In this document: one piece after another, positions 8,015 through 61,084 of the stretch
Position numbering within the stretch: the stretch's first letter is position 1
Layout: every line of letters starts with the position of its first letter
Position numbers and translations under genes: made by a program
The notes under the pieces: generated by a model
What the model was told of the DNA's origin: nothing
The model's input: only the letters and a program-made list of their open reading frames with translations
Database searches by the model: none
NCBI GenBank assembly: GCA_018242585.1
Contig: JAFEBQ010000050.1
Coordinates: forward strand, 1-64,000
Direction: 5' to 3'
DNA length: 64,000 nucleotides
Source of the DNA: Planctomycetota bacterium
GTDB taxonomy: Bacteria > Planctomycetota > Planctomycetia > Pirellulales > PNKZ01

Positions 8015-10138
8015 ATGGCAAAACAGGTCGCAACCTGGGGCATCGACATCGGCGACTCCGCGCTCAAGGCGCTACGCTGTGTCCCCAACGAAGACGGTAG
8101 CCACATCACCGCCGTTGCCTTCGACTACATCGAGTATCCCAAGCTGCTCAGCCAGCCCGATGCCGATCGCAACGAGTTGGTCGTGGAAGCGCTCAAGCAG
8201 TTTCTGTCGCGCAATTCGGTTCGCGGCGATCGGGTGGTGATCTCGGTTGGTGGCCAGGCCGGCCTGGCCCGGTTTATCAAGTTGCCGCCGGTCGAGACCT
8301 CGAAGATTCCCGACATTGTCCGTTACGAAGCCCGACAGCAGATCCCCTTTCCGTTGGAAGATGTCGTCTGGGACTTTCAGCAACTCAGCGGCGGCATGGC
8401 CACCGAAGGGTTCGCGCTCGACTCGGAGGTGGGCTTGTTCGCGATGAAGCGCGACCAGGTTTACAAGTATCTCAAGCCGTTCGACGACGTCGACGTGGAA
8501 GTCGACGTCATCCAGTTGACGCCCGAGGCGCTGTACAACTACGTCGTCTTCGACCAGTTGACCAACCTGCCGCCGCCGGACGAATACGACCCCGACAACC
8601 CGCCCGACAGCATCGTGGTGATGTCGCTGGGGACTGAATCGACCGATCTGGTGGTGACCAATGGGTTCCGTATTTGGCAGCGCAGCGTGCCGGTCGGCGG
8701 CAACCACTTCACCAAGGCGCTGGTCAAAGACCTGAAGATGAACTTTGCCACGGCCGAACATCTGAAGCGGAATGCCGCGCAGGCCGAGGATCCCAAGGCG
8801 CTGTTCCAGGCGATGCGCCCCGTGTTCAACGATCTGCTCTCCGAGACGCAGCGCTCATTGACCTATTTCAAGAACAACATCGATCGCAAGGCCAAGATCA
8901 GCCGCATTCTGGTTCTTGGCAACGCCATCCGGTTGCCGGGCCTGCAAAAGTTCCTGGCCCAGAATCTGGGTCACGAGCTGGCCAAGGTGGAAAGCCTGCG
9001 CGGGCTAAGCGGCAGCGGCGTGATCGACCAGCCCGCCTTCCGCGACAACCTGCCGGCGTTTGGCGTCTGCTACGGGCTGGCGCTGCAAGGCTTGAGCAAA
9101 GCGCGGTTCAACACCAACCTGCTGCCCCCCGAGATCATCCAGTTCCGCAAGATTCGGGCCAAGAAGCCGTGGGTGGCGCTGGCGGCGTCGCTGATGTTGA
9201 TCGGCTTTGGCGCTAGCTTCTTTATGTGGTCCGAGGCGCTCAAAGCCGTCTCGCTCGATCCGCCGCAGGGAGATCAGTTTTCGACGTTTCGGAAGCCAAT
9301 GGATAACGCAAACAGCGTGATTAACGACGCGGCTAAATGGCAGAAGGAATTTGAGGAGAACCGGGCCGCGTTTGTCAAAACCGATGAAGTGGGTCAGAGC
9401 ATCGTGCAAAACGTGATGCACCGGGACACCTGGATGCAATTGTTGCGGGCGGTCAATCTCTGTCTGCCGCGCAATGCCGGCGAACGCCCCAAGGAAGAAA
9501 TCAAGCTGCGCGACGAGATCAAGATCGACAGCTTTGACTGCCGCTTTGTCCCCAAGCTCGAGGAGTGGTACGCCGCTCATCACAAGCCGGCCGTTCCCGC
9601 GCCGGGCGCGCCTTCGATGGACGGCTCGCAACCGGGCGAGCAGCCGCCGCCTGACCCGAACGCCGACCCCAACGCGCAGCAGCCGGTGCCGACCGCGCCG
9701 ACCGACGCGGGGCCGACTGGCCCAGGTTGGGTGATTCAGATCACGGCGCACCATTATCGAAACATTCGCAGTGAGCCAGCCACGAACCAGGGGGCCAACT
9801 TCCTTCGCCGGACGCTGATGAAGAATTTGGAACAAGACACCGTGCCCATTCCCGACAGCGAACGCAAGGAAGGTGATCCACCGCGGTTCCCGGTGAAAAA
9901 GCTGGGCATCACTTACCCGTTGTTGATGGGCGACGCCGCCATCGACTGGAACTACAAGCTGACGATCCCGCAGGGGGATGGCGGCGACCATGGCGCCGGC
10001 GGCGGTGGTCAGGCCCCGCCGCCCAAGATCGTCGAGCAGCCGCGTTATGACTTCAAGGTGCAGTTCTGCTGGCAGCCCTTCAAGCCCGCCGAGTCGGCCG
10101 CCAAGCCGGCCCCCGACGCCGCGGCCATGAACCAGTAA
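8015..10138 (+). CDS. pilM: PilM-like pilus/secretion assembly protein with GspL-like C-terminal extension
   Basis: A 707-residue protein. Residues 1-370 are an actin-like ATPase domain typical of PilM/GspL (phosphate motif GIDIGDSALK at 9-18, and IKLPPVETSKIPDIVRYE). A membrane segment follows at about 385-405. The rest, about 300 residues, would be extracytoplasmic, with a Pro-rich linker near 525-572. PilM itself is normally about 350 residues and soluble, so this looks like a PilM-PilN or GspL-type fusion that ties a cytoplasmic ATPase-fold ring to the inner membrane. It is the first gene of a four-gene operon ending in a secretin. No pilin, prepilin peptidase or motor ATPase is in the window, so pilus versus type II secretion cannot be decided. 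Confidence 0.85.
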   Translation: MAKQVATWGIDIGDSALKALRCVPNEDGSHITAVAFDYIEYPKLLSQPDADRNELVVEALKQFLSRNSVRGDRVVISVGGQAGLARFIKLPPVETSKIPDIVRYEARQQIPFPLEDVVWDFQQLSGGMATEGFALDSEVGLFAMKRDQVYKYLKPFDDVDVEVDVIQLTPEALYNYVVFDQLTNLPPPDEYDPDNPPDSIVVMSLGTESTDLVVTNGFRIWQRSVPVGGNHFTKALVKDLKMNFATAEHLKRNAAQAEDPKALFQAMRPVFNDLLSETQRSLTYFKNNIDRKAKISRILVLGNAIRLPGLQKFLAQNLGHELAKVESLRGLSGSGVIDQPAFRDNLPAFGVCYGLALQGLSKARFNTNLLPPEIIQFRKIRAKKPWVALAASLMLIGFGASFFMWSEALKAVSLDPPQGDQFSTFRKPMDNANSVINDAAKWQKEFEENRAAFVKTDEVGQSIVQNVMHRDTWMQLLRAVNLCLPRNAGERPKEEIKLRDEIKIDSFDCRFVPKLEEWYAAHHKPAVPAPGAPSMDGSQPGEQPPPDPNADPNAQQPVPTAPTDAGPTGPGWVIQITAHHYRNIRSEPATNQGANFLRRTLMKNLEQDTVPIPDSERKEGDPPRFPVKKLGITYPLLMGDAAIDWNYKLTIPQGDGGDHGAGGGGQAPPPKIVEQPRYDFKVQFCWQPFKPAESAAKPAPDAAAMNQ

Positions 10139-13449: not shown

Positions 13450-13924
13450 CATGCGCCGATCGACGGCACATCGCCGACAGCGTGGCTTCCCGCCTCCCTG
13501 CTCCCACTCCCCTGTCCTTGGCGCGTCAGCACGCCGAGTTGGATAAAGATTCTAATGATTCCGTCGCGAGTGACCTTGACCGGCTTTGCCGGCATCGGTA
13601 TTAACACCGCCTCTTGTCTGAACTTGTCCCTTGATCCGACCAACAGGTGAGCTCAAACGGCCCACGTTTTCCGGCGAAATTCAGCGGTTTTCGCTGAATC
13701 GACCTGGACAACGCGACCCCCGCCGCGCGGTTCACCGAACCTGCCGAACGACCCGTCAGAAAAATCTTGCCGGAAAAAAGTCCGGTCAGATTTGCGCTGA
13801 CAACAACGTCCCATCCTTTGCGTTGTCACGGTCGAGCGTCGCAGGCCAACCAACACCGAACACCCCCGCCCGCCGCACACTACGCCTGGCCGCAAGGCCC
13901 GGCGCGCAAGTCTACGCATCTCGA

Positions 13925-13930
13925 AAGGAG
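13925..13930 (+). promoter_or_regulatory. Shine-Dalgarno site fixing the secretin start at TTG
   Basis: AAGGAG lies 6 nt before the TTG at 13937. The translated sequence right after it is a good signal peptide, so this site defines the start although the open frame extends 306 nt further upstream. Confidence 0.75.
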
Positions 13931-13936
13931 ATCGGC

Positions 13937-16900
13937 TTGAACACCACGTCGCGATTCCTGCTTGGCTGCCTGGCCACTGGCGCGCTCGCCTTGAGCAGCG
14001 TCGTTTGGACCGGCATGCCCGCTCAAGCGCAGAACCCGGCGGTCGGCGTACCGTCCGAGGACGCGAACGAGGCGTTGGAAAACGAGTCGGTCGAGATGCG
14101 CCGCGTCAAGGTGCTCGACTTGTGCAAGCGCGCCCGCCAGGCGATGGAGGCCGGCAATTGGGAAACGGCCGACTCGCTGATTCGCCGCTCCGAGGCGTTC
14201 CAGGTCCGCTGGCCGGTGATGTATTTCGGCGACCGCCCCGAAAAGGTGCGCAAGGACTACCAGAAGGTGCGCGGCACGTCGGCTGGGCTGCCCAGCAAGC
14301 AATACCAGGCCAACAGCACCACGACCAGCACGCCCGACGCGCCGGTCGCCAAACACAACAGCAAGACCCCGACCGATCCATTCGCCGCCCAGGCGGCATT
14401 GGCCGCCCAGAACGAAGCCGCCCCCAAGGCCCCGTCGATCAACGACCCGGGCAGCCAGGCCAAGCAATGGCTGGCCAAGGGCCGCGCTGAACTCAGTCGT
14501 GGCAACGTCACCGGCGCTTCGCACTGGTATCAGAAGGCCGCCCAGGCCCAGACCACTTGGAATCCGAACGAAGACACGCCCGAGAAGTTGTTCGTCGACC
14601 TTCGCGCCGCCGGTGGCAAGGCGCCAGCCGCCGAGCCGATCGCGGCGAACCCGGGCGCCAACGCGCGCAATCCGGTCGCCGCCGGCAACAGCCCGTTCGC
14701 GCGCCCCGAGACGACCACGCCGCCGGCCGCCGACGACCAACTCCCCCCTGCCCTGCGCCGCGCGGGCGCAAACAACGCGCCGGCCACTGCCCAGGCCGCC
14801 CAGGCCAATCCGATGACGGCGCCGGTCAATCCGCCGTCCGCCCCCCCTGTCACGAATCTGCCCGCGGTGACACCCGCGTCGTTCAACGCGCCGCCGGTTG
14901 CCGCCGCGCCGACGACCGCTTCTTACCCGACGACGAATGTGCCGGCGACCGCTTCGCTGCCGACCACGGCCACTCCAAACGACACGGAAAGCCGCCGCGC
15001 GCAAAGCGACGGCTTGTTGTGGACCGCCCGCCGCGCGCTGGCGGTGGGCGATGTGCGCCGCGCCACCGAAGCGGTGAACCAGGCCAAGGCCTTGGCCGTG
15101 AACTATGACCCGCGTGAAGATTCGCCGGCCCGCGTCGAAGCGGCTGTCGCCAAGTTCGCCGACCTGGCCCAGCGTCCCGCCGGCGAACGTGACTCGGAAG
15201 GTTACCGTCGCCGCTACGCCGAATTGCAAATGCAGCAGGCCGACGACCTGCTCCGCCTGCGCGACTTTGACGAGGCCGAACGGCTGGCCACCGAGGCCAA
15301 GCGGCGCGGCATCATCTACTCGCCGTTCGAGAACAATCCGGACGATCTGCTGAAGCGGATCGCCGAAGCCCGTCGTGGCACGAACTCGCGCTCGATCGAA
15401 CCGTTGCCCAGCCCGACCGGGGCCCCGGTGACGATGACTCCGCCGGCCGCCGCCAACCCGACGGCAACTCCCGCGGCCACCAACGAACTGAAGCTCCGTG
15501 CGCAGAATCTGCTGCAACAAGCCCGGGTCGCCATGGCGGGGGGCGATTTGAACCAGGCCGAAGCCTTGGCCCAGGAAGCCGATCGGCTGCGCGTGCCCGA
15601 GGAATCGCTCGGCCAGCGTGACGACCGTCCCTGGCTGGTGTTGATGCAGATTCAAAAGGCCCGGCAGCAGCAAGCCACCGGCGGCGTGCAAAACGTCGGC
15701 GCCGTGCAGCCCGCCTCGGGCGTGATGCCGATTGCCGGCGCGAACGCGGCGTCGCAGGCATACTACGATCCGGCCACCGACGCGACGCACAATATGACCG
15801 TCGCCAACCAGCAACCGCTGACGACCGGCGCGTCGACACCGGCTGCTGGTCCGTCGAGTTCACAGAAGATCGGCGTGGCCTTGTTCGTGCAAGGTGAGGA
15901 GGCCTTGCGGCGCCACGATCCGAAGACCGCGGCGGCCCTGTTCCGCGAAGCGGCCACGCACCACGACGACCTTGACCAGCAAATGCAACAGCGGCTGCAA
16001 GATCGCCTGCAACTGACCGCCGGCACGGCGCCGTTGCCGACCACCCAGCCCAACGAAGCCAACTCGCTGATGCGCGAAGCCGCCCAGGGTCAGGCCCTGA
16101 AGCTGCGCCAGGCCAGCGACGAATTGAACCGCAAGATTTCCCAGGCCAAGCGCCTGCAAGAGTCGGACCCCAAGCAAGCCACCCTGGTCTTGCAACAGGC
16201 CCGCACCGAAGTGGAAAAGTCATCGGTCGATTCGAGCAACAAGGAAATGTTGCTCCGCCGCGTTGACCGAGTGAGCGACGAACTGGCCAAGTACCTCGAT
16301 GCCAATCGGCCGCGCATCGAGCTTGACGAAAAGAACCAAGCGGTCAAAGACGAGATCGCCCGCGAAGAGCAAGCCAAATTCGACATGCAGGACAAGCTGG
16401 CCAAAACGATCGATGAGTTCAACGAACTGATGGACCAGCGCCGCTTTGCCGAAGCCGAACTGGTGGCCAAGAAGGCCTTCGAGATCGCGCCGCGCGAACC
16501 GGTGGTGATGCAGGTCATGCGTCAGGCCAAGCTCGTGCGAAGCAACGAAAATGCCAAGGCGCTCCGCGAGGAAGGCCAGGACGGCTGGGTTCGCCAGATG
16601 GAAAGCATTCAAGAATCGGGCATCCCCTTTGATGACCGCCAGCCGATGCAGTTCCGCGACGCCAAGGAATGGAAGCAACTGAGCGAGACCCGCGGCGCCT
16701 GGTTGGCCCGACAGTCCAAGCGGAAGACCGAGCGCGAAATCGAAATCGAACAGCGACTCCGCACGCCGGTCTCGATGCAGTTCAAGGACACGCCGCTGCA
16801 AGAAGTGATGCGGCACCTGTCGAGCGTGACGGGTGTGAACATCTACCTCGATCCGCGCGGCCTGGCCGAAGAAGCCGTCGACAGCAGCACCCCGGTGACC

Positions 16901-18601
16901 ATCAGCCTGAACAGCGACATTTCGCTGAAGAGCGCGTTGCACCTGGTGCTCGATCCGTTGCACCTGAGCTTCATCATCAAGGATGAAGTGTTGAAGATCA
17001 CCAGCGAGCAAATGCGCGATGGCGAGGTCTATACCCAGACCTACAGCGTCGCCGATCTGGTGATTCCGATTCCGAACTTCGTGCCGAACGGGCAGATGGG
17101 CCTGGCCGGCGCGTTGGCCGACGCCCAGCGCAACGCCGGCGCGGCGGGCAACGGGCAAGGCAGCATGGCCGGCACCGGCGGCCCCATGGCCGTGGTCGCC
17201 AGCTCGAATGGCGGCTCGACCAATGCCGCGGTCAATCCCGAGGTGCTGGCCCAGTTTGGCGGCGGCATTCAGCCGATGGGCGGCATGTTCGGCCGCGGCG
17301 GCGCGACCGGTTCGCCCCAGAACATCCCCTTCGCCTCGCCGGGCGGATTGGGTGGTGGCGTGCAGCCGGACTTTGACTCGTTGATGGAATTGATCACCCA
17401 GACCATCGCGCCGCAAAGTTGGACCGAAGTCGGCGGCGCCGGCGCGATCAAGGAGTTCCCGACCAACTTGAGCCTGGTCATCAGCCAGACCCAGGAAGTC
17501 CACGAACAGATCGCCGAGTTGCTCGAGCAGCTCCGCCGCCTGCAGGATCTGCAAGTGACGATCGAAGTCCGCTTCATCAACCTGAGCGACACGTTCTACG
17601 AGAAGATGGGGATCAACTTCGACATTAATATTCCGAGTAATGTGCCGCAAAGCACGCTCAACAATCAGTTCACCACCGACGCCAACGGCAACCTGATCAA
17701 GACCGGCACGTTCAGCTACTCGAACTCGATTACTGGTGGTATGCAAAACTTGACCCAACCGACCAGCACGACAGGCGGTTTCTCGCCGGTGTGGACGAAC
17801 GACCTGAGCATTCCGTTCAATCAATCGAGCTTTAGCCTGACGAATCCAAACCTGTCGCAGTTCAACTTGCCCCAGTCGGGCGTGTTGGGCGGGGCCTCGC
17901 TCGGGTTTGCCATCTTGAGCGACATCGAGACCTACTTCTTCTTGCAAGCGGTGCAAAGCGACAGCCGCACCAACATCATGCAGGCCCCCAAAGTCACGCT
18001 GTTCAACGGCCAGCAGGCGTTCGTGTCCGACACGCAGCAGGTGCCGTTCGTCATCACGGTCATCCCGGTCGTCGGCGACTTTGCCGCCGCCCAACAACCA
18101 GTGATCGTCGTCTTGTCCGAAGGAACTTTCCTCACGGTCCAGGCGGTGGTGTCGAGCGACCGCCGGTTTGTCCGACTGACGGTGGTGCCATTCTTCAGCA
18201 ATATCTCGGCCGTGAACACCTTCACGTTCACCGGTTCGTCCAGCAGCACCCGTGACACTAGCACCACCGGTCCGGTGGGCGCCTCGACCAGCCAGAACAA
18301 TGTCGCGTCGGCCACGAACAACGGCACCACGGTGCAGTTGCCGACGTTCGCCTTTACCACGGTAACCACCACGGTCAGCGTGCCCGACGGCGGCACGGTC
18401 TTGCTCGGTGGCATCAAACGACTGGCCGAACAGCGGATCGAGAATGGCGTGCCGATCCTGAACAAGCTGCCCTACGTGCAGCGGTTGTTCAACAACATCG
18501 GCACCGGCCGCACGACGACTAGCCTGATGATGATGGTCACGCCGCGCATCATCATCCAGGAAGAAGAAGAAGCCAAACTGGGCCAAGGTTCCACGCCGTA
18601 A
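13937..18601 (+). CDS. secretin (GspD/PilQ family) with large repeat-containing N-terminal region
   Basis: A 1554-residue outer-membrane secretin that would form the exit pore of a type IV pilus or type II secretion machine. The TTG start gives a signal peptide (about 1-31, ending PAQAQ). The first 930 residues are unusual: five or six degenerate helical modules of about 35 residues (for example ARQAMEAGNWETADSLIRRS, ARRALAVGDVRRATEAVNQA and ARVAMAGGDLNQAEALAQEA), separated by Ala/Pro/Thr-rich linkers. A secretin N-domain follows at about 947-1030 (MQFKDTPLQEVMRHLSSVTG), then a Gly-rich spacer, then the secretin core at about 1200-1545 with VTIEVRFINLSD, TNIMQAPKVTLFNGQ and VPDGGTVLLGGI. Ordinary secretins have 600-750 residues. 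A strong terminator follows. Confidence 0.93.
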   Translation: MNTTSRFLLGCLATGALALSSVVWTGMPAQAQNPAVGVPSEDANEALENESVEMRRVKVLDLCKRARQAMEAGNWETADSLIRRSEAFQVRWPVMYFGDRPEKVRKDYQKVRGTSAGLPSKQYQANSTTTSTPDAPVAKHNSKTPTDPFAAQAALAAQNEAAPKAPSINDPGSQAKQWLAKGRAELSRGNVTGASHWYQKAAQAQTTWNPNEDTPEKLFVDLRAAGGKAPAAEPIAANPGANARNPVAAGNSPFARPETTTPPAADDQLPPALRRAGANNAPATAQAAQANPMTAPVNPPSAPPVTNLPAVTPASFNAPPVAAAPTTASYPTTNVPATASLPTTATPNDTESRRAQSDGLLWTARRALAVGDVRRATEAVNQAKALAVNYDPREDSPARVEAAVAKFADLAQRPAGERDSEGYRRRYAELQMQQADDLLRLRDFDEAERLATEAKRRGIIYSPFENNPDDLLKRIAEARRGTNSRSIEPLPSPTGAPVTMTPPAAANPTATPAATNELKLRAQNLLQQARVAMAGGDLNQAEALAQEADRLRVPEESLGQRDDRPWLVLMQIQKARQQQATGGVQNVGAVQPASGVMPIAGANAASQAYYDPATDATHNMTVANQQPLTTGASTPAAGPSSSQKIGVALFVQGEEALRRHDPKTAAALFREAATHHDDLDQQMQQRLQDRLQLTAGTAPLPTTQPNEANSLMREAAQGQALKLRQASDELNRKISQAKRLQESDPKQATLVLQQARTEVEKSSVDSSNKEMLLRRVDRVSDELAKYLDANRPRIELDEKNQAVKDEIAREEQAKFDMQDKLAKTIDEFNELMDQRRFAEAELVAKKAFEIAPREPVVMQVMRQAKLVRSNENAKALREEGQDGWVRQMESIQESGIPFDDRQPMQFRDAKEWKQLSETRGAWLARQSKRKTEREIEIEQRLRTPVSMQFKDTPLQEVMRHLSSVTGVNIYLDPRGLAEEAVDSSTPVTISLNSDISLKSALHLVLDPLHLSFIIKDEVLKITSEQMRDGEVYTQTYSVADLVIPIPNFVPNGQMGLAGALADAQRNAGAAGNGQGSMAGTGGPMAVVASSNGGSTNAAVNPEVLAQFGGGIQPMGGMFGRGGATGSPQNIPFASPGGLGGGVQPDFDSLMELITQTIAPQSWTEVGGAGAIKEFPTNLSLVISQTQEVHEQIAELLEQLRRLQDLQVTIEVRFINLSDTFYEKMGINFDINIPSNVPQSTLNNQFTTDANGNLIKTGTFSYSNSITGGMQNLTQPTSTTGGFSPVWTNDLSIPFNQSSFSLTNPNLSQFNLPQSGVLGGASLGFAILSDIETYFFLQAVQSDSRTNIMQAPKVTLFNGQQAFVSDTQQVPFVITVIPVVGDFAAAQQPVIVVLSEGTFLTVQAVVSSDRRFVRLTVVPFFSNISAVNTFTFTGSSSSTRDTSTTGPVGASTSQNNVASATNNGTTVQLPTFAFTTVTTTVSVPDGGTVLLGGIKRLAEQRIENGVPILNKLPYVQRLFNNIGTGRTTTSLMMMVTPRIIIQEEEEAKLGQGSTP

Positions 18602-50464: not shown

Positions 50465-51761
50465 GTTGTTGCGGCTGGCAAGCGCGATGGTCTGGTTGAC
50501 GGCGGCCGTGGCGGTGGCCGCTGCGCCGGGTGAGCGACTGCCCTGGCCCGACAAAAGCGGCCCGACCTTCGACGGGCACGCGGCCGCGGAAGATTGCGCC
50601 GGCGTGCCGACCACTTGGGACGAAGCCTCGGGCAAGAACGTCGCCTGGAAGATTCCGATCGAAGGGGCTGGGCTCTCGACGCCGGTCATCGGCCACGGCA
50701 AGCTTTGGTTCACCTCGGCCACCGAAGACGGCAAGCAGCAGTACGTCTATTGCGTCGAGGCGGCCAGCGGGCGCGTGCTGCACCACAAGCTGGTGTTCGA
50801 GAATCCCGAGCCCGAGCCGTTGGGCAATCCGGTGAACACGTACGCCTCGCCGTCGTGTTACTTGGAACCTGACGCGGTGTACGTCCATTTCGGCGCGTAT
50901 GGGACGGCGCGGCTCGATCCGGAAACAGCCAGCGTCGTCTGGCAGCGGCGCGACCTGCCGTGCCGTCACTTTCGCGGGCCGGGCTCGTCGCCGGTCGTGT
51001 TTCAGGATTTGCTGATCCTGACGTTCGATGGCATCGACCTGCAATACGTCGAAGCCCTCGACAAGCGCACCGGCAAGACGGTGTGGCACACGCCACGCAG
51101 CACCGACTACAAGGACTTGAACGCCGAGGGAAAGCCGAAGGCCGACGGCGATCTGCGCAAGGCGTACCACACGCCGGTCATCACCATGGTCGACGGCCAG
51201 CCGCAGCTGATTTCCATCGGATCGAAGGCCGGCTTTGGCTACGAGCCGCTGACCGGCAAAGAGATTTGGACGTTCGAGCACAGCGACATGAACGCCTCGG
51301 CGCGGCCGCTGTTTTTGCCGCACCAAGTCATCGTCAATACCGGCGGCAGCGAGCTGTATAACATTCGCCTCGACAGCACCGCGCGCGGCAATGTGTCGAA
51401 GAGTCACGTCAATTGGATGCGCAAAAAGAACAACGCCAAGCTGTCTTCGCCGGTGGTGGTAAAGGGCCGGATTTACTACGTGACCGACAAGGGGGTGGTG
51501 TTCTGCGTCGATGCCGCCAAGGGGGAGGAACTGTGGGCCAAGCGGCTGGGCGGACAGTTCGTGGCGTCGCCGGTCGTGATTGGCGACTTGATCTACTTCT
51601 GCGACGAGGTCGGGACCAGCTACGTGATCCGCGCCGGCACCGAGTATCAGGAAGTGGCGCAAGGCCTGCTAAGCGACGGCATGCGGGCATCGCCGGCGGT
51701 GGCCAACGGCGCGCTGTACATGCGCACCTTTAATTCGCTCTACAAGATTGCCGCCAAGTAA
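50454..51761 (+). CDS. exported PQQ-like beta-propeller protein
   Basis: A 435-residue protein. GTG at 50454 follows GGAAGA and gives a signal peptide (about 1-28, [20 protein letters not shown]); TTG at 50466 is an alternative. The mature part has repeated blades of the PQQ/BamB-like type: [69 protein letters not shown] and [20 protein letters not shown]. Many planctomycete proteins of this family are annotated as PQQ-binding without cofactor proof. Coupled to the dehydrogenase gene. Confidence 0.92.
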
Positions 51762-51833
51762 CGCTAGCTGGGCACACACGCCGCGGGCGACACGCGACCG
51801 GCGGAAACTTTGTGCGGCCCAGGCAAATCAAGG

Positions 51834-51863
51834 TTGCCCAATCGCGCGCGGCGCGGCTAGATT
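51834..51863 (+). promoter_or_regulatory. candidate promoter of the SYLF gene
   Basis: TTGCCC (51834-51839) and TAGATT (51858-51863) with 18-nt spacing, 65 nt before the ATG at 51928. Each box matches about four of six consensus bases. Confidence 0.35.
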
Positions 51864-51927
51864 CTGGGCTGCGCCGGGCGTATTCGTTGGCTCGGTTTCA
51901 TTCGTTGACTCGCACCGAGGCAGGCTT

Positions 51928-52947
51928 ATGTTGCGATACACACCACTGGTCATTGCCGCGCTCGTCACGTTCAGCGCCAGCGCGCCGGTCGTCCACGCCG
52001 ATCCCGAGCAGACGGTCCTTTCGGCCGATCAGGTGTTGCAGGAGGTGATGGCCATTCCGGCCAAGCAGATTCCCGAGTCGCTAATCACGCAGGCTCAGGG
52101 GATCGTGATTGTGCCCGACGTGTTGAAGATCGGCTTTGTGGCCGGCGTGCGGCGCGGACAGGGAGTAGTGATGGTGAAGGACAAGGACGGCGAGTGGACC
52201 TTGCCGCAGTTCATCACCCTGACCGGTGGCAGCGTCGGTTGGCAAGCGGGCGTACAAGGTTCGGATGTGATTCTGGTGTTCATGACTCAAAAGAGCGTCG
52301 AAGGGCTGCTGCGCGGCAAGGTGACAATCGGCGCCGACGCGGCCGCCTCGGCCGGTCCCGTGGGGCGCAACGCGGCCGCCGCCACCGACGCGCGCTTGAA
52401 AGCCGAGATTCTTTCCTACTCGCGTAGCCGCGGGTTGTTCGCTGGCCTGGCGATTGACGGCTCGGTGATTGAAGTCGATCAGACCAGTCCGCTGGCTTAT
52501 TACGGCGCTGGGGCTGGGCAGATACCACTGCACGTTCCTCAGTCGGCGGCCAAGCTGCGCCAGGATCTGACCGCCATCACCCACGGCGTGGCCCACGCAC
52601 CGGCCGCGCCGGGTGCCGTATCTGGGAGCGCGCCGCCGACTCGGTTGATGGTCCTACGCCAGTCATTACGGACCAATGCGGGACAGTTGACGCCGCTGGT
52701 CGATCCCAGTTGGCAGCAATACCTGGCGCTGCCACGCGAGGTGTTTGAAGGAGACGTCGCGCCGAGCCTTGATAGCCTGAAGGCGGTGCAGGATCGGTAC
52801 GCGTCCGTGGCCACACGGCCCGAGTACAAAGCGTTGGCTGAGCGCCCCGAGTTCCAGGCGACGTACGAGACCCTACGCGAGTTTACCCAGGAAGTCACCG
52901 CCGCCACGCGAGCCCGGCTGGCCTTGCCACCACCACCGGCGCCGTAA
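51928..52947 (+). CDS. SYLF (Ysc84) domain lipid-binding protein, secreted
   Basis: A 339-residue protein. The ATG at 51928 has GAGG upstream and opens a signal peptide (about 1-25, VIAALVTFSASAPVVHA). The SYLF domain spans about 40-195: IPESLITQAQGIVIVPDVLK, GFVAGVRRGQGVVMVKDKDG, QGSDVILVFMTQKSVEGLLR and YSRSRGLFAGLAIDGSVI. SYLF domains bind phosphoinositides in eukaryotes; in bacteria the role is unclear. The C-terminal 120 residues are not recognised. Confidence 0.9.
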   Translation: MLRYTPLVIAALVTFSASAPVVHADPEQTVLSADQVLQEVMAIPAKQIPESLITQAQGIVIVPDVLKIGFVAGVRRGQGVVMVKDKDGEWTLPQFITLTGGSVGWQAGVQGSDVILVFMTQKSVEGLLRGKVTIGADAAASAGPVGRNAAAATDARLKAEILSYSRSRGLFAGLAIDGSVIEVDQTSPLAYYGAGAGQIPLHVPQSAAKLRQDLTAITHGVAHAPAAPGAVSGSAPPTRLMVLRQSLRTNAGQLTPLVDPSWQQYLALPREVFEGDVAPSLDSLKAVQDRYASVATRPEYKALAERPEFQATYETLREFTQEVTAATRARLALPPPPAP

Positions 52948-54868: not shown

Positions 54869-57800
54869 ATGGCAATGACGGCCGAACAACTTGGGCAAGC
54901 GATCGTCGACGCGAGCATTATGCCCGCCGACGAGATCAAGGCCTTCTGGTCTTCGCTGCCGGCGGGGAGCCGGCCCAAGACGGGTGAAGAACTCGCGCGG
55001 TTGCTCGTCGAAAAGCAACTCTTCACCGAGTTCCAAATCAAGCAAATGTTGGCCGGCCGCGCCCAGGGGCTGGTGTTGAACCAGTACCTGCTGATCGACA
55101 AGATCGGCGCCGGCGGGATGGGGCAGGTGTTCAAGGCCCGACATCGCAAGATGAAGCGGCTGGTGGCAATCAAGCTCCTACCCCCTCAGATGGTCAAGGA
55201 CAAGGACGCCATCCGGCGCTTCCAGCGCGAGGTCGAAGCGGCCGCGCGGTTGTCGCACCCGAACATCGTCGCGGCGCTTGATGCCGACGAGTGCAAGGGG
55301 TTGCACTATCTGGCCATGGAATACGTCGACGGCAAGGACTTGTCGGCCAATGTCAAAGAGCGCGGGCCGTTGCCGGTTGACGAGGCGTTGAACTACATCG
55401 CGCAAGCGGCCCGCGGGCTGGCGTTCGCCCACGGCGAAGGGGTGGTCCATCGAGACATCAAGCCGGCCAACTTGTTGCTCGACAAAAAGGGTGTCGTCAA
55501 GATTCTCGACATGGGGTTGGCCCGGCTCGAGGACGCCAATGCCGCCGACCAGCAATTGACGAACACCGGCGCGGTGATGGGGACCGTCGACTACATGGCC
55601 CCCGAGCAGGCGACCGACACCCGCCACGCCGACGCCCGCAGCGACATTTACAGCCTGGGTTGTTCGCTGTATCGCATCTTGACGGCTGAAAGCGCGTTCG
55701 AAGGAGACACGGTCGTCAAGAAGATTCTGGCGCACATGAACGCGCCCATTCCCTCGCTCGTGGCCAAGCGCCCCGACGTGTCGGCCGAGGTCGATCGGGT
55801 CTTTCAGAAGATGATGGCCAAGCGCCCCGAGGACCGCTACCAGACGGCCGATCAACTGGTTACCGAACTCGACGCCGCCCGAGGGGTTTCGTCAACGGCC
55901 ACGATGGTCACTTCGGCCAGCACGACCAGCGACCCCCAGTTGAGTCAGTTTCTCAGCTCGTTCAAGCCCGAGGGGGGCAGCTCGCCGAGCCTCGGTGGTG
56001 CGGGCAAGGTCGTCGACTTCGCGGACAGCGCGACGGCGGCGTTCGGTAATCAGCAACTGAAGAGCTTGATGGGGAATACGCTTTCCACGTCGCGGGCCGA
56101 GTTGGAAACCGACCCCAAAAGTCAGGTTCAATTCCCCAAGGGTCTGCCTGGCGCCAAACCGGCCGGCGGCAAGTCGCCTCCCGGGAAGAACCCGTTGGTG
56201 CTCGTCGGCGCTGGCGGGGCTGGGTTTGTGCTGGTGGCGCTGGGACTGTGGTTGGTGTTCCGCGATTCGGGCGGCAAGGAAGTCGCTCGCGTCGAGGCCC
56301 AGCCGGGAGTGAAAGTGCAGACGGCGCCGGGTACCACGGTCGAGGTGCAATCTCCATCGGCCGACCCCGACGGCGCCTTCAAGATCGGCGATTCTGACCG
56401 CGCAGTCGCCGAGTGGATTTGCGCCAATCAAGGATTGGCTGGCATCGAAGTCGGCACTGGTCGCGCGATGCGCAACGTCGACGCCAAAGACGCGGGCAAG
56501 CTGCCTGTCGAAAACTTTGCTTTGGTGACCGTGAGATTCCCAGCGGGCAAGAAGCCGCCAGCGGAAATCATTCAACAGCTTCCGGGCTGCAAGCGCCTGT
56601 CGAACCTGGTGCTCAACAAGACCTTACTCACCGACACTGATTTGTCGCCGCTGTCCAAGCTGCCGCAACTCAGCTGGCTCGATCTGGCCTATAACGACAT
56701 CACCGCCACGGCGCTACTGGTGCTGCGTAATCAACGCAGCCTGAAATTACTGTTTCTCAACTCGACCCAGATTGCTCCCCAATCGGCCGTGGCGTTCGCC
56801 TTGAGCCAACCGGCGCTCGAACACTTGGACGCTAATTGGGACGATGCCACGCGCGCTGCATTTGTTCCCCCCCCGACCCTCACGAGTCTGGGCATGCCAG
56901 GCATCGATGACCAGATTGCCGCGCGAATGGGTACCTGGGCCCAACTCAATAACTTGTCGATCCCTTCCAGCGGCAAATTGACCGAAGCAGGTTTCGTCAA
57001 CATTTGCCGGTTAACTAAGCTGGACCGCTTGAGGATCGACAGTACCAACGCCGCCGACTCATGGTTGCTCCATTTACAAAAGTTGCCGCAGCTCGAACGT
57101 CTAGAGGTTGGGAATACCAAGGTCACAATCGCTGGACTGGAAAAACTCGCCTCGTTGCCGAAGCTTCGTTTCGTCAGCCTCACAGGCTCCAAGCTGAGTG
57201 CCGACAACCTCGCATCGCTCAGAAAAGCGTTACCCAAGTGCATCATCGATTACGACGGCCGCACTTTTGGACCGTCAATCGGAGGGACGGACGTTTCGAG
57301 CGGCTCGTCAGCGACCATTGCGTCGGCTTCCTCGCCGTACGCCCCTTGGCCGTACGATCTCCAGGACGGCAGGCAGTATGCGTGGAGTGCGCCCGAGAAT
57401 CTCGGGCCAAATATCAACACCAACAATGAAGATATTCTGTGGGGAGTCAGCGAAGACGAGCGGACTCTTTACTTCGTCAATGCTCGAAGCACCTTGCAGG
57501 TGAGTCGCCGCGCCAGTCCAAGCGAGCCTTGGCCCAAGCCGACATCACTTCCTGTTATGCCAGGATTTGAGTATGTGGGCATCGTCAGCTACGACGGCCA
57601 GGAAGCGATGAGCGTCAAAGATAAGGATCTGTGGCAGTGTCATTGGGACGCGAAACAGCAGGCGTTTATCAACCCCACGCCGCTGCCGGCGCCGGTCAAT
57701 CTCCCGGGTCACGGGACCAAGCACCCTGCGCTATCGCCTGACGGATTGACGCTGTTGTGCACTTCCGCTCGCCCGGGTAGTCAATCGGGGGACGTGTGGA

Positions 57801-60800
57801 TGTTTTCGCGTTCGGCGTTGGACAAGCCGTTCGCGACCGCCGGGCGTTGGGGCGAGCCGATCAGTTCGCCCGATTGGGACATGCCTTATTACGTGTCGAA
57901 CGATCGCTGCTTTGTGATTGTCTCGCGGCAGTACGACGCGGCAGGTCGCTCGATTCGCGATACGTCGTATTTCACCCGTGCCAAAGCTCCCGATCCGTTT
58001 GGCCCTGGCCAATCGATTGGCATTCCAATGGGCGGGGGAGAGCGGGATCCGAGCAACGGCGCGTTCAAGCTCGCTGACCAGGGTCGCGCGGTGTATTTCC
58101 ACTCGCAAGCGGTCCCTGGGGGGCGGGGCTACGACATCTGGGTCAGCCGCCGCGTGCCCGTAGCCAGCCAATCGGATTCGAGTGTGGCCTTTCTCGATGA
58201 CTTGAACGAGGTCTTCTATCAAGGGGGCCATCGCATACTGGGCAAGCGCGGCCACGAAGACAGCAACCAGCCGTTTACCTTCCGCGGCGTGCAACCGGCC
58301 CATGCGCTGGTGACGCATCCCCGCGACGACAGCACCGCCAAGGTGCTCTATCAACTAAATGGCCAATACCAATCATTTGAAACCAAGGTCGGATTTGCCG
58401 ACAAGACCGCGAAAGGGGACGGCTTCAAGGGAACATTGACCTTCCGAGTGCTGGGGGACGGCAAGGAACTGTGGAAGTCTCCCGGGCTGCGCGGAGCGAC
58501 CGACGAGGCGACGTGCGCGGTCGCGGTGCCCGGAGTGCGCGAGTTACAGCTTGAAATCAGGTGCGACGGGCCGTGTGATCGGGGCTATGGCGTCTGGCTC
58601 GACCCGCGGCTGGCGCGGACCATTGCCGCGCCGTCTTCGGCGGGAGTTGTCTACCTGGATGACCTGGCCGAGGTGGAAAGCAAGTCCTTCTGGGGACCGC
58701 TTCTGAAGCACGGCCTGGCTCCCCCCAGCCTTCGCGAAGGAGCTGGGATCCCCACCACCTGGCAGGGCAAACCGCTTGTTCACTCTTTGGCCATTCATCC
58801 CGCCGGCGGCCAACCAGCGCTGGTTCGCTATCGTTTGGATGGCAAGTACGAGACCTTCGAAGGGATCGTGGGGATTGCCGAGACTGCGGCCACGCCCCCG
58901 GCTTCGCCGGTCGAGTTTCGCGTCATCGGAGACGGACGCGAGTTGTATAAGGTCGCCTCGGGAAAAGAGCTCGGCCAGGCGGGCCGATTCTCCTTTTCGG
59001 TTCGCGGCGTCAACGAACTGCGCTTGGAAGCGGCCTGCCTGGGCTCGAGCAATGGCAATTGTCACGCCATGTGGATCAACCCGCGGCTGACGCCGGCATT
59101 GGGGGCTACGCCAAACGCGACGAGCGATCGTGCTCTCGATCGCAAGGCGGCCCAGTGGTTGCTCGATCACCAGTTTGGCTGCCTGCTGATGGTCCGCGAC
59201 AAGAAGGTGGTGGTCAAGCCGGGCACACCTCTGCCCGCCGAAGCGTTCGTATTCAGCAGCATCGATACTTACGCGACGGCATCGATTCCGCGCGATGAAC
59301 TGGTTCCCTTCCTCAGCGAATTTCGCCAGTTGACCGGTGTCGTTTTCAGTTACTTGCCCCAAAAAGATTGTGACCTGTGGGCCGAGACGTTTGCCGCCAT
59401 GCCGGGCATTGCCGCCGTCAATGCCGCCAGTTGTGCCGAGTTGACGGACGCCGGCGTGGCTCACCTGGCCCGCTTGCCCAAGCTGGGCTATCTCAACCTG
59501 GGAGGTTGTTCAAAGGTCACTCGAGTCGGCCTGGCGGCGCTGGAAAAATGTACTTCGCTCAACACCATCGAGTTGGAACCACAGGGGTTCGCGGACGGCA
59601 AGTACTCGCTCGCCGACGTGCAACGGCTGCAAGACGCCTTGCCGAAAACGCGCGTGGTCTTCACCCGCATTCAACCGATCCCCGGTCTCAAGCCGGCCAG
59701 CCAGAGCGCCGCCGAAAAGCCGAAGGCCGGCGGCGTTTGGAACACGCCCGCGTTCCAGAAGTGGCTGACCGAGACGCAAAAGCTGCCGGCCGAAAAACAG
59801 CTTGAAGCCGTCAGCAAGAAGCTGGTGGAGTTGAACCCCGGCTTCGACGGCAAGGTCACCCACAAGACCCATCAAGCGGCGGTGACCGAGTTTACTTTCT
59901 ATTCCGACCGCGTGACGGACCTTTCGCCGGTGCGAGTGTTTTCGAAGCTGACCACGCTGGGCTGCGGTGGTAGCCGTGACGACGCGGGACAGCTCGTTGA
60001 TTTGTCTCCTCTGCAAGGGATGAGCCTGACTTCGCTGTTATGCGGAGGAACGCGGGTGGCGGACTTGACGCCGCTCAAGGGAATGCCGCTGGTCAGCCTG
60101 CGCGCCTATGCCACGTTGATCGCCGATCTGACGCCGTTGGCGGGAATGCCGCTCCGGGATATTAACATTGGCGGCACGCGAGTCGCCGACCTCTCGCCGC
60201 TTGCGGGAGATACGATTCAGGCAGTCAGCTTCGGCTACACGGCGATTGTAGATCTGACCCCGTTGCAACGCTGCCCGAATCTGAAAAACGTCAGTGCGGA
60301 GCACACGAAGCTCACCGCCGCCAACGTCGCGGCCCTACAAAAAGCATTGCCCAATTGCCAGATTCAATGGGACGGCGCGAGCAACGCCACGGCCAGCAAG
60401 CCTGGGGAGGCCGCCGTATTCCAAAAGTGGGTCGAGGAGACGAAGAAGCTGCCGGTCGACAAGCAAATCGAAGCCGTCAGTAAAAAGATGATGGAGCTGA
60501 ACCCTGGCTTCGACGGCCAACTGCGCGGGCGCGACGGCAAGGTACCGCCGACCATGGAAAACGGCGTGGTCACCTTGGTTCATTGCTGGCCCGAAAAGGT
60601 CACTGATCTCTCCCCGCTGCAAGCCTTCGCCGGATTGAAGGATATCAACCTGGGGGGCGGAGGAACGCACGGCCGCGGCAAGGTGAGCGATCTATCGCCG
60701 CTGGTGGGCTTGCGATTGATTTCGGTCAGCATCTACGTGACGATGGTCAAAGACCTGACGCCGCTGGCGGGAATGCGGATCACTTATCTGAACGCTGGCG

Positions 60801-61084
60801 ATACGCCGATCACCGATTTGCGCCCGTTGGCGGAATTGCCGCTCCGGCAGTTGTTCCTGCCCAATACCAAGGTTGCCGATCTGTCACCGTTGGCAGGAGT
60901 GCCGCTGAGTATCTTGAACTGCGCGGGAACACTGGTGGCCGACCTGACGCCGCTGGAAAGGTGCCCTGAGCTGACCTCGCTGAACGTCAAGGGAACCAAG
61001 GTCACCGCGGCCGGTGTGGCCAAGCTGCAGAAGGCGCTTCCCAAGTGTCACATCGACTGGGATGACCCGGCCGCCAAGCAGTGA
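54869..61084 (+). CDS. giant Ser/Thr protein kinase with LRR, propeller and NPCBM modules
   Basis: A 2071-residue membrane protein. Residues 1-70 are a helical N-domain seen in planctomycete kinases. The kinase domain is at about 73-338: GAGGMGQV (80-87), Lys102, HRDIKPAN (194-201), Mg motif DMG instead of DFG (214-216), and MAPEQA. A membrane segment lies at 441-464. Outside: a leucine-rich region (about 560-790), a PD40/WD40-like stretch (about 845-1100), two NPCBM domains (about 1105-1250 and 1260-1410), another LRR part (1420-1610), and a duplicated C-terminal unit starting at about 1629 and 1851, each with [24 protein letters not shown] followed by short VTDLSPL-type repeats. All kinase residues are present, so it is probably active. 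It may sense carbohydrates. Confidence 0.93.

What the first reader, a model, noticed from the sequence alone, without database searches (positions are those of the whole stretch)
54869..61084. 2071-aa kinase with carbohydrate-binding and duplicated LRR-like sensor units
One polypeptide joins an apparently active kinase, a membrane segment, LRRs, a PD40-like region, two NPCBM domains and a C-terminal tandem duplication (about 1629-1850 and 1851-2071) with the shared EAVSKK and ELNPGFDG pieces. It suggests a surface glycan receptor signalling inward by phosphorylation. The C-terminal duplicated unit may be an undescribed domain.
Basis: partly seen in the sequence, partly recalled or inferred. 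Interest (0 to 1): 0.6.

Follow-up and report, generated by a model that had tools for sequence, protein, structure and literature searches.

The report
Mosaic membrane kinase with internalin-like sensors
This planctomycete gene makes one long membrane protein: a protein kinase inside the cell and a string of binding modules outside, the last two shaped like the host-binding part of Listeria internalins; it is a mosaic member of a known class of bacterial receptor-like kinases, with a sensor cap that the main protein-family library has not named.

Summary
In detail: a 2071-aa ORF (54869-61084) with an intact kinase, one membrane segment, LRRs, a PD40 propeller, two NPCBM domains and two related C-terminal units (49% identical). 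The C-terminal unit is not an unknown fold: it is modelled with high confidence (pLDDT 95) as an internalin-type LRR domain with helical N-cap, a variable number of 21-residue repeats and a helix-strand C-cap. What Pfam lacks is the N-cap (~33 residues). The cap recurs 16 times in 7 of about 38 kinases of this genome and in 6 of 7 family genomes, but in only 16 of 392 sampled phylum genomes. In relatives the module also sits behind signal peptides, and charge bias supports kinase-in/sensor-out in 39 of 42 homologs, so the sensor is extracytoplasmic, most likely periplasmic rather than "surface". The protein is a mosaic: its kinase-membrane half is 82% identical to a paralog with a different sensor half, and the two C-terminal units are probably not sisters. 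Glycan binding rests only on the NPCBM family name. Most likely a ligand-gated transmembrane Ser/Thr kinase of a known planctomycete class with a distinctive, expanded sensor module. Rapid diversification was tested in a limited way and not supported.

The parts
54869..55078 (+). N-terminal ~70-residue region before the kinase, shared by paralogous kinases; no Pfam family
   Evidence: no Pfam match; conserved in paralogs
55091..55858 (+). Ser/Thr protein kinase domain (residues 75-330), G-loop, [16 protein letters not shown] and APE present
   Evidence: Pfam PF00069 E 3.1e-53; motifs
55859..56188 (+). Cytoplasmic juxtamembrane linker (331-440), net positive just before the membrane
56189..56260 (+). 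Single transmembrane segment (441-464)
   Evidence: Kyte-Doolittle maximum 2.16 at 445-463; same place in homologs; charge bias N-in/C-out in 39 of 42
56261..56389 (+). Outer juxtamembrane linker ([25 protein letters not shown]) shared by paralogs; strong similarity to the C37 paralog stops here at residue ~507
56396..57259 (+). LRR block A (510-797), 41% identical to the end of the C28 kinase paralog
   Evidence: Pfam LRR_8/LRR_4
57377..58168 (+). PD40 / WD40-like beta-propeller region (837-1100)
   Evidence: PF07676 23.1 bits, cut-off 20.9; 28% identity to paralog PD40 region
58196..58618 (+). NPCBM domain 1 (1110-1250)
   Evidence: PF08305 E 2e-18
58649..59080 (+). NPCBM domain 2 (1261-1404)
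   Evidence: PF08305 E 1.2e-13
59108..59698 (+). LRR-like block B (1414-1610), no Pfam match; 57% identical to the end of a 2277-aa kinase in a family member
   Evidence: LRR by eye
59753..60370 (+). C-terminal unit 1 (1629-1834): helical N-cap (1629-1661), internalin-type LRRs, C-cap
60419..61060 (+). C-terminal unit 2 (1851-2064): same anatomy, N-cap 1851-1883

Best explanation
A single-pass inner-membrane Ser/Thr (Hanks-type) kinase with a ~1600-residue extracytoplasmic sensor built as a string of exchangeable binding modules: LRR block, PD40 propeller, two NPCBM, LRR block, then two capped internalin-type LRR units. Most likely mechanism: a ligand in the periplasm or envelope (protein, peptide or glycan) binds one or more modules, this brings kinase chains together or changes their spacing, and the cytoplasmic kinases phosphorylate each other and then target proteins. 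Shown here by sequence, topology signal and predicted structure: the module anatomy, the fold of the C-terminal units, the extracytoplasmic placement of the unit, and the mosaic make-up. Inferred: catalytic activity, ligand binding, dimerisation and targets.
For: Kinase motifs and Pkinase match. One hydrophobic segment in homologous position in relatives, positive-inside bias in 39 of 42. The same capped-LRR module follows apparent Sec signal peptides in stand-alone relatives (L041, L180). AlphaFold2: tandem pLDDT 92, single unit pLDDT 95 / pTM 0.91; best structural matches are internalins and the Roco LRR domain, e.g. InlB 1oto Z 19.9, rmsd 2.9, 187 aligned from its N-cap on. 16 full caps in 7 kinases of this genome. 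Ectodomains of relatives swap FGE-sulfatase, Lectin_C, Laminin_G_3, 3keto-disac_hyd, NPCBM, PD40 and LRR modules. Kinase-TM half 82% identical to the C37 paralog while the ectodomain differs. Published precedent: planctomycete kinases with cytoplasmic Pkinase and periplasmic repeat, FGE and DUF1080 domains (PMC11032199).
Against: No experiment. No ligand, target or phosphatase partner is suggested by the neighbours: HIBADH-like dehydrogenase, PQQ/BamB-like, Ysc84, DUF3467 and SDR genes on one side, aminotransferase IV and RmuC on the other. The DFG motif reads DMG. Topology rests on hydropathy and charge, not on a dedicated predictor. A few relatives carry the cap in proteins without a kinase, so the module is not bound to kinase output.
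Confidence: 0.72

Rival explanations
1. Glycan receptor in the strict sense: the two NPCBM domains bind an envelope or environmental polysaccharide and that binding is the signal.
For: Two NPCBM above cut-off; weak sequence match to solved carbohydrate-binding relatives (7js4, 2vmg/2vmh); relatives carry other lectin-like domains in the same place.
Against: Matches to solved NPCBM relatives are weak (best E 4e-6 and 1e-4) and sugar-contacting residues were not tested. Only two of the seven cap-bearing kinases here (window and C10) show NPCBM. NPCBM has also been proposed as an invader sensor (PMC8195603).
Confidence: 0.3
2. Protein or peptide receptor, or envelope scaffold: the LRR units bind a protein ligand, a partner receptor or the cell's own envelope proteins; NPCBM only anchors the chain.
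For: The most expanded part in this genome is the internalin-like LRR unit; the LRR frame is constant while positions 11, 12, 14, 16 and 17 of each repeat vary at 3.0-4.0 bits, as expected for a binding face. Internalins bind host proteins through this domain (InlB-MET, PMC3986869).
Against: A shared fold shows no function; no ligand known.
Confidence: 0.4
3. Member of a fast-diversifying recognition or conflict repertoire, in which modules are shuffled and binding faces are under diversifying selection, akin to an immune receptor set.
For: Mosaic architectures; near-random concave positions with all 51 own-genome repeats unique; published proposal of NPCBM and FGS domains as invader sensors fused to kinases (PMC8195603).
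Against: No reverse transcriptase found in this genome, so no diversity-generating retroelement was detected; in three ~91-93% identical orthologs the concave codons show pN/pS 0.21-0.61, not above 1 (only 35 codons). No defence neighbours.
Confidence: 0.1
4. The hydrophobic stretch is not membrane-spanning and the whole protein is cytoplasmic.
For: Hydropathy of the stretch is moderate (2.16).
Against: Conserved segment with charge bias in homologs; stand-alone relatives with signal peptides.
Confidence: 0.04

Closest known systems
Planctomycete transmembrane Ser/Thr kinases with periplasmic repeat domains (Ca. Uabimicrobium, Gemmataceae; PMC11032199)
   Same: Cytoplasmic Pkinase, one membrane span, C-terminal extracytoplasmic repeat or lectin-like domains, strong paralog expansion
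   Different: That paper's main text names WD40, TPR, FGE and DUF1080 domains; LRR and NPCBM are not mentioned in it. Here capped internalin-like LRR units are the expanded part.
Internalin domain of Listeria (InlA, InlB, InlC2)
   Same: Helical N-cap followed by short (21-22 residue) LRRs; Z about 19-20 over ~190 residues including the cap
   Different: No C-terminal Ig-like domain; a helix-strand C-cap ([12 protein letters not shown]) instead; cap not matched in Pfam and PDB sequence searches; fused to a kinase and repeated up to 5 times
LRR domain of Chlorobium tepidum Roco protein (5il7, 6hlu)
   Same: Best or tied structural match of the single unit (Z 20.2, rmsd 2.5, 195 aligned)
   Different: Intracellular GTPase partner, different architecture
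Plant LRR receptor-like kinases
   Same: Works alike: LRR sensor outside, Ser/Thr kinase inside, one membrane span
   Different: Kinase is N-terminal here, LRR class is internalin-like, no evidence of common origin of the architecture
PknB/Stk1 PASTA kinases
   Same: Kinase domain scores best with this NCBIfam model (321.7 bits) and topology is alike
   Different: Below the equivalog cut-off (450); no PASTA domains

Membership tests
Hanks-type (Pkinase, PF00069) transmembrane Ser/Thr kinases | Pkinase domain above Pfam cut-off with catalytic Lys, HRD Asp and DxG Asp | tested here: met
Hanks-type (Pkinase, PF00069) transmembrane Ser/Thr kinases | Single membrane span between kinase and extracytoplasmic part | tested here: met
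   hydropathy and positive-inside bias; not by a dedicated topology predictor
Hanks-type (Pkinase, PF00069) transmembrane Ser/Thr kinases | Kinase activity | not testable with these tools
   needs a biochemical assay
PknB/Stk1 PASTA kinases (NF033483) | Score above the equivalog cut-off, with PASTA repeats | tested here: not met
   321.7 against 450 bits; no PASTA in Pfam
Internalin domain | Internalin-type LRRs with helical N-cap | tested here: met
Internalin domain | C-terminal Ig-like domain after the LRRs | tested here: not met
   AlphaFold model ends in a helix-strand C-cap; definition from PMC3986869 abstract
NPCBM (PF08305) | Profile match above Pfam cut-off | tested here: met
   two stretches
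NPCBM (PF08305) | Binds carbohydrate | not testable with these tools
   only sequence relatives with weak scores
PD40 propeller (PF07676) | Profile match above Pfam cut-off | tested here: met
   23.1 against 20.9 bits for the piece alone; whole protein 16.1, below
DGR-diversified receptors | Reverse transcriptase in the genome | tested here: not met
   no PF00078 match, controls ring; genome is 56 contigs, 99.9% complete

The most novel reading that the evidence does not exclude
A lineage-restricted bacterial receptor-kinase repertoire in which one kinase-membrane chassis is joined to shuffled strings of capped internalin-like LRR units with constant frames and near-random binding faces, a bacterial counterpart of plant LRR receptor kinases used to tell envelope, prey or invader molecules apart.
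Probability: 0.15. Interest if true: 0.65.

Novelty: new variant of a known kind. Interest (0 to 1): 0.4.

Why it matters
The N-cap (FQxW...[15 protein letters not shown]) marks a portable sensor module absent from Pfam; naming it would annotate many planctomycete kinases and secreted proteins at once. The set also gives a testable bacterial system of receptor-kinase mosaics: nearly the same kinase half (82% identity) with different sensor halves in one genome allows direct sensor-swap tests of what planctomycete kinases perceive, which is largely unknown.

Tried and rejected
Unknown fold for the repeated unit: rejected, internalin-like LRR. Diversity-generating retroelement: no reverse transcriptase. 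Diversifying selection on the LRR face: not seen in three Schlesneria orthologs (small sample, the pattern caught 7 repeats and no caps). Local tandem duplication of the two units: the tree puts unit 1 with a C51 unit (96/84) and unit 2 with a unit of another species (87/93), but the test holding them together gives p 0.057, so it is not formally rejected; a first tree missed unit 2 because of a pattern error and was redone. Functional gene cluster: neighbours give no hint. PASTA, BREX, lanthionine-synthetase and MADS6 NCBIfam hits only reflect the shared kinase fold and lie below cut-offs. No ortholog of the same full architecture in the 7 family genomes; the nearest is a 2277-aa kinase in G395 with PD40, NPCBM and block B in the same order but no match reported to the C-terminal units. 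Literature searches found no description of the capped LRR unit; the library is open-access only.

Full report
Observation. The window encodes on the + strand a 2071-aa protein from ATG 54869 to the stop at 61084. Paralogous kinases start at the same place relative to the kinase, which supports this start. Pfam finds a kinase at 75-330 and two NPCBM domains, plus LRRs; pieces scanned alone give PD40 above its cut-off and both NPCBM clearly. Motifs for an active kinase are present: G-loop 80, VAIK 99, HRDIKPAN 194, LDMG 213, APE 244. The only strong hydrophobic segment is 445-463. The C-terminal units are 49% identical over their whole length, E 4e-63. It missed an LRR-like block at about 1414-1610, without a Pfam match, which is 57% identical to the end of a kinase in a family member.

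What the C-terminal unit is. In the same genome the unit recurs in six further kinases (contigs C3, C51, two on C12, C10, C37), up to five in one protein. Alignment of 13 units shows three parts: a conserved N-cap ([29 protein letters not shown]), a variable number of 21-residue LRRs (DLSPLxGMPLxxLxxxxTxV), and a conserved C-cap ([21 protein letters not shown]). AlphaFold2 gives pLDDT 92 for the pair and 95 (pTM 0.91) for unit 2 alone: two cap helices, a beta hairpin, an LRR solenoid, a closing helix and strand. The low pTM of the pair (0.59) means that the relative placing of the units is uncertain. Sequence profiles match internalins only from about profile position 43-50 on, that is without the cap, and Pfam finds only LRR families in all 19 members tested. 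Structure comparison aligns the unit, cap included, with InlB (Z 19.9, rmsd 2.9, 187 residues), InlC2 and the Roco LRR domain. So the fold is known and internalin-like; the cap sequence is what Pfam does not cover. The Ig-like domain that ends the internalin domain (PMC3986869) is missing here, so this is 'like an internalin domain', not a member.

Distribution. With the cap profile, 6 of 7 genomes of the same family have it (17 matches in the own genome, one of them a fragment), but only 16 of 392 genomes sampled across the phylum. The LRR part matches far more widely (166 of 392 with the whole-unit profile), as expected of generic LRRs. Named relatives with the whole unit are Schlesneria, Planctomicrobium, Pirellula and other planctomycete MAGs. 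In the own genome all 16 full caps lie in kinase ORFs, 7 of about 38 kinases (40 Pkinase matches, two genes being split in two). Elsewhere a few lie in proteins without a kinase.

Topology. Over 42 homologous kinases with a clear segment, the net charge is more positive on the kinase side in 39. Independent support: in L041 (two adjacent genes) and L180, stand-alone proteins carry the capped unit behind what read as N-terminal signal peptides (...VIACLGCPAVFADEA......LFVAISFGPIARADEP...; judged by eye). The sensor is therefore extracytoplasmic. A published survey of planctomycete kinases places Pkinase in the cytoplasm and the fused repeat, FGE and DUF1080 domains in the periplasm (PMC11032199). 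Hence periplasmic is a better word than surface.

Mosaic make-up. Relatives carry at the same place combinations of FGE-sulfatase, Lectin_C, Laminin_G_3, 3-keto-disaccharide hydrolase, NPCBM, PD40 and LRR units. Residues 1-507 of the window protein are 82% identical to the C37 paralog, while beyond that point only a 28% PD40 match and the LRR unit remain. LRR block A matches the C28 paralog at 41%. Unit 1 groups with a C51 unit and unit 2 with a unit from another species, though the test against a sister relation is borderline (p 0.057). The first units behind the membrane in five other kinases form their own clade (97/96). This looks like module shuffling on a kinase-membrane chassis.

Binding face. 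Across 51 own and 238 related repeats the frame positions are near constant, while positions 12, 14, 16 and 17 reach 3.4-4.0 bits of a possible 4.3. This suits a binding surface. It does not show diversifying selection: orthologs give pN/pS below 1 there (few codons), and the genome has no detectable reverse transcriptase.

Mechanism. Shown: anatomy, fold prediction, extracytoplasmic signal, mosaic. From established knowledge of Hanks-type receptor kinases: ligand-driven association and trans-phosphorylation. Inferred: activity, ligand, targets. A glycan ligand is possible through NPCBM but has only weak support; a protein or peptide ligand through the LRR units is at least as likely. NPCBM and FGS domains fused to kinases have been proposed as invader sensors inside cells (PMC8195603), which keeps a recognition role open.

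Verdict. A real, well-formed gene; a new variant of a known class; moderately interesting for the recurrent capped module and the swap-ready paralogs.

Noticed in passing
54869-55078: The ~70 residues before the kinase are conserved in paralogs of this genome and have no Pfam family.
   Followed up: partly
13631-18601: ORF of 1656 aa whose last ~200 residues are a secretin domain; very long N-terminal part, near a PilM-like gene at 8015-10138: an unusually large pilus or secretion-type secretin.
   Followed up: no
L040:7347-8978: ORF with only the first ~82 positions of the kinase profile followed by the capped LRR unit; an internal deletion, recombination product or assembly join.
   Followed up: no
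L163:3096-9590: 2165-aa protein with membrane segments near the N-terminus, Laminin_G_3, FGE-sulfatase, PD40, LRRs and the cap but no kinase: same sensor modules on a different output.
   Followed up: partly
L174:3897-5711 and L175:4029-6086: Cap-profile matches at the end of proteins that begin with a CxxC...CxxC zinc-ribbon-like stretch and a membrane segment, no Pfam family, no kinase.
   Followed up: no
L028:6520-6960, L029:4678-5445: Some units lack the usual C-cap and end in an alternative tail (FWKKYDAGEF / FWKEVE) that is common in related kinases.
   Followed up: no
51748-52947: Ysc84 (Las17-binding) domain protein upstream of the kinase, a family named after a eukaryotic actin regulator.
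   Followed up: no
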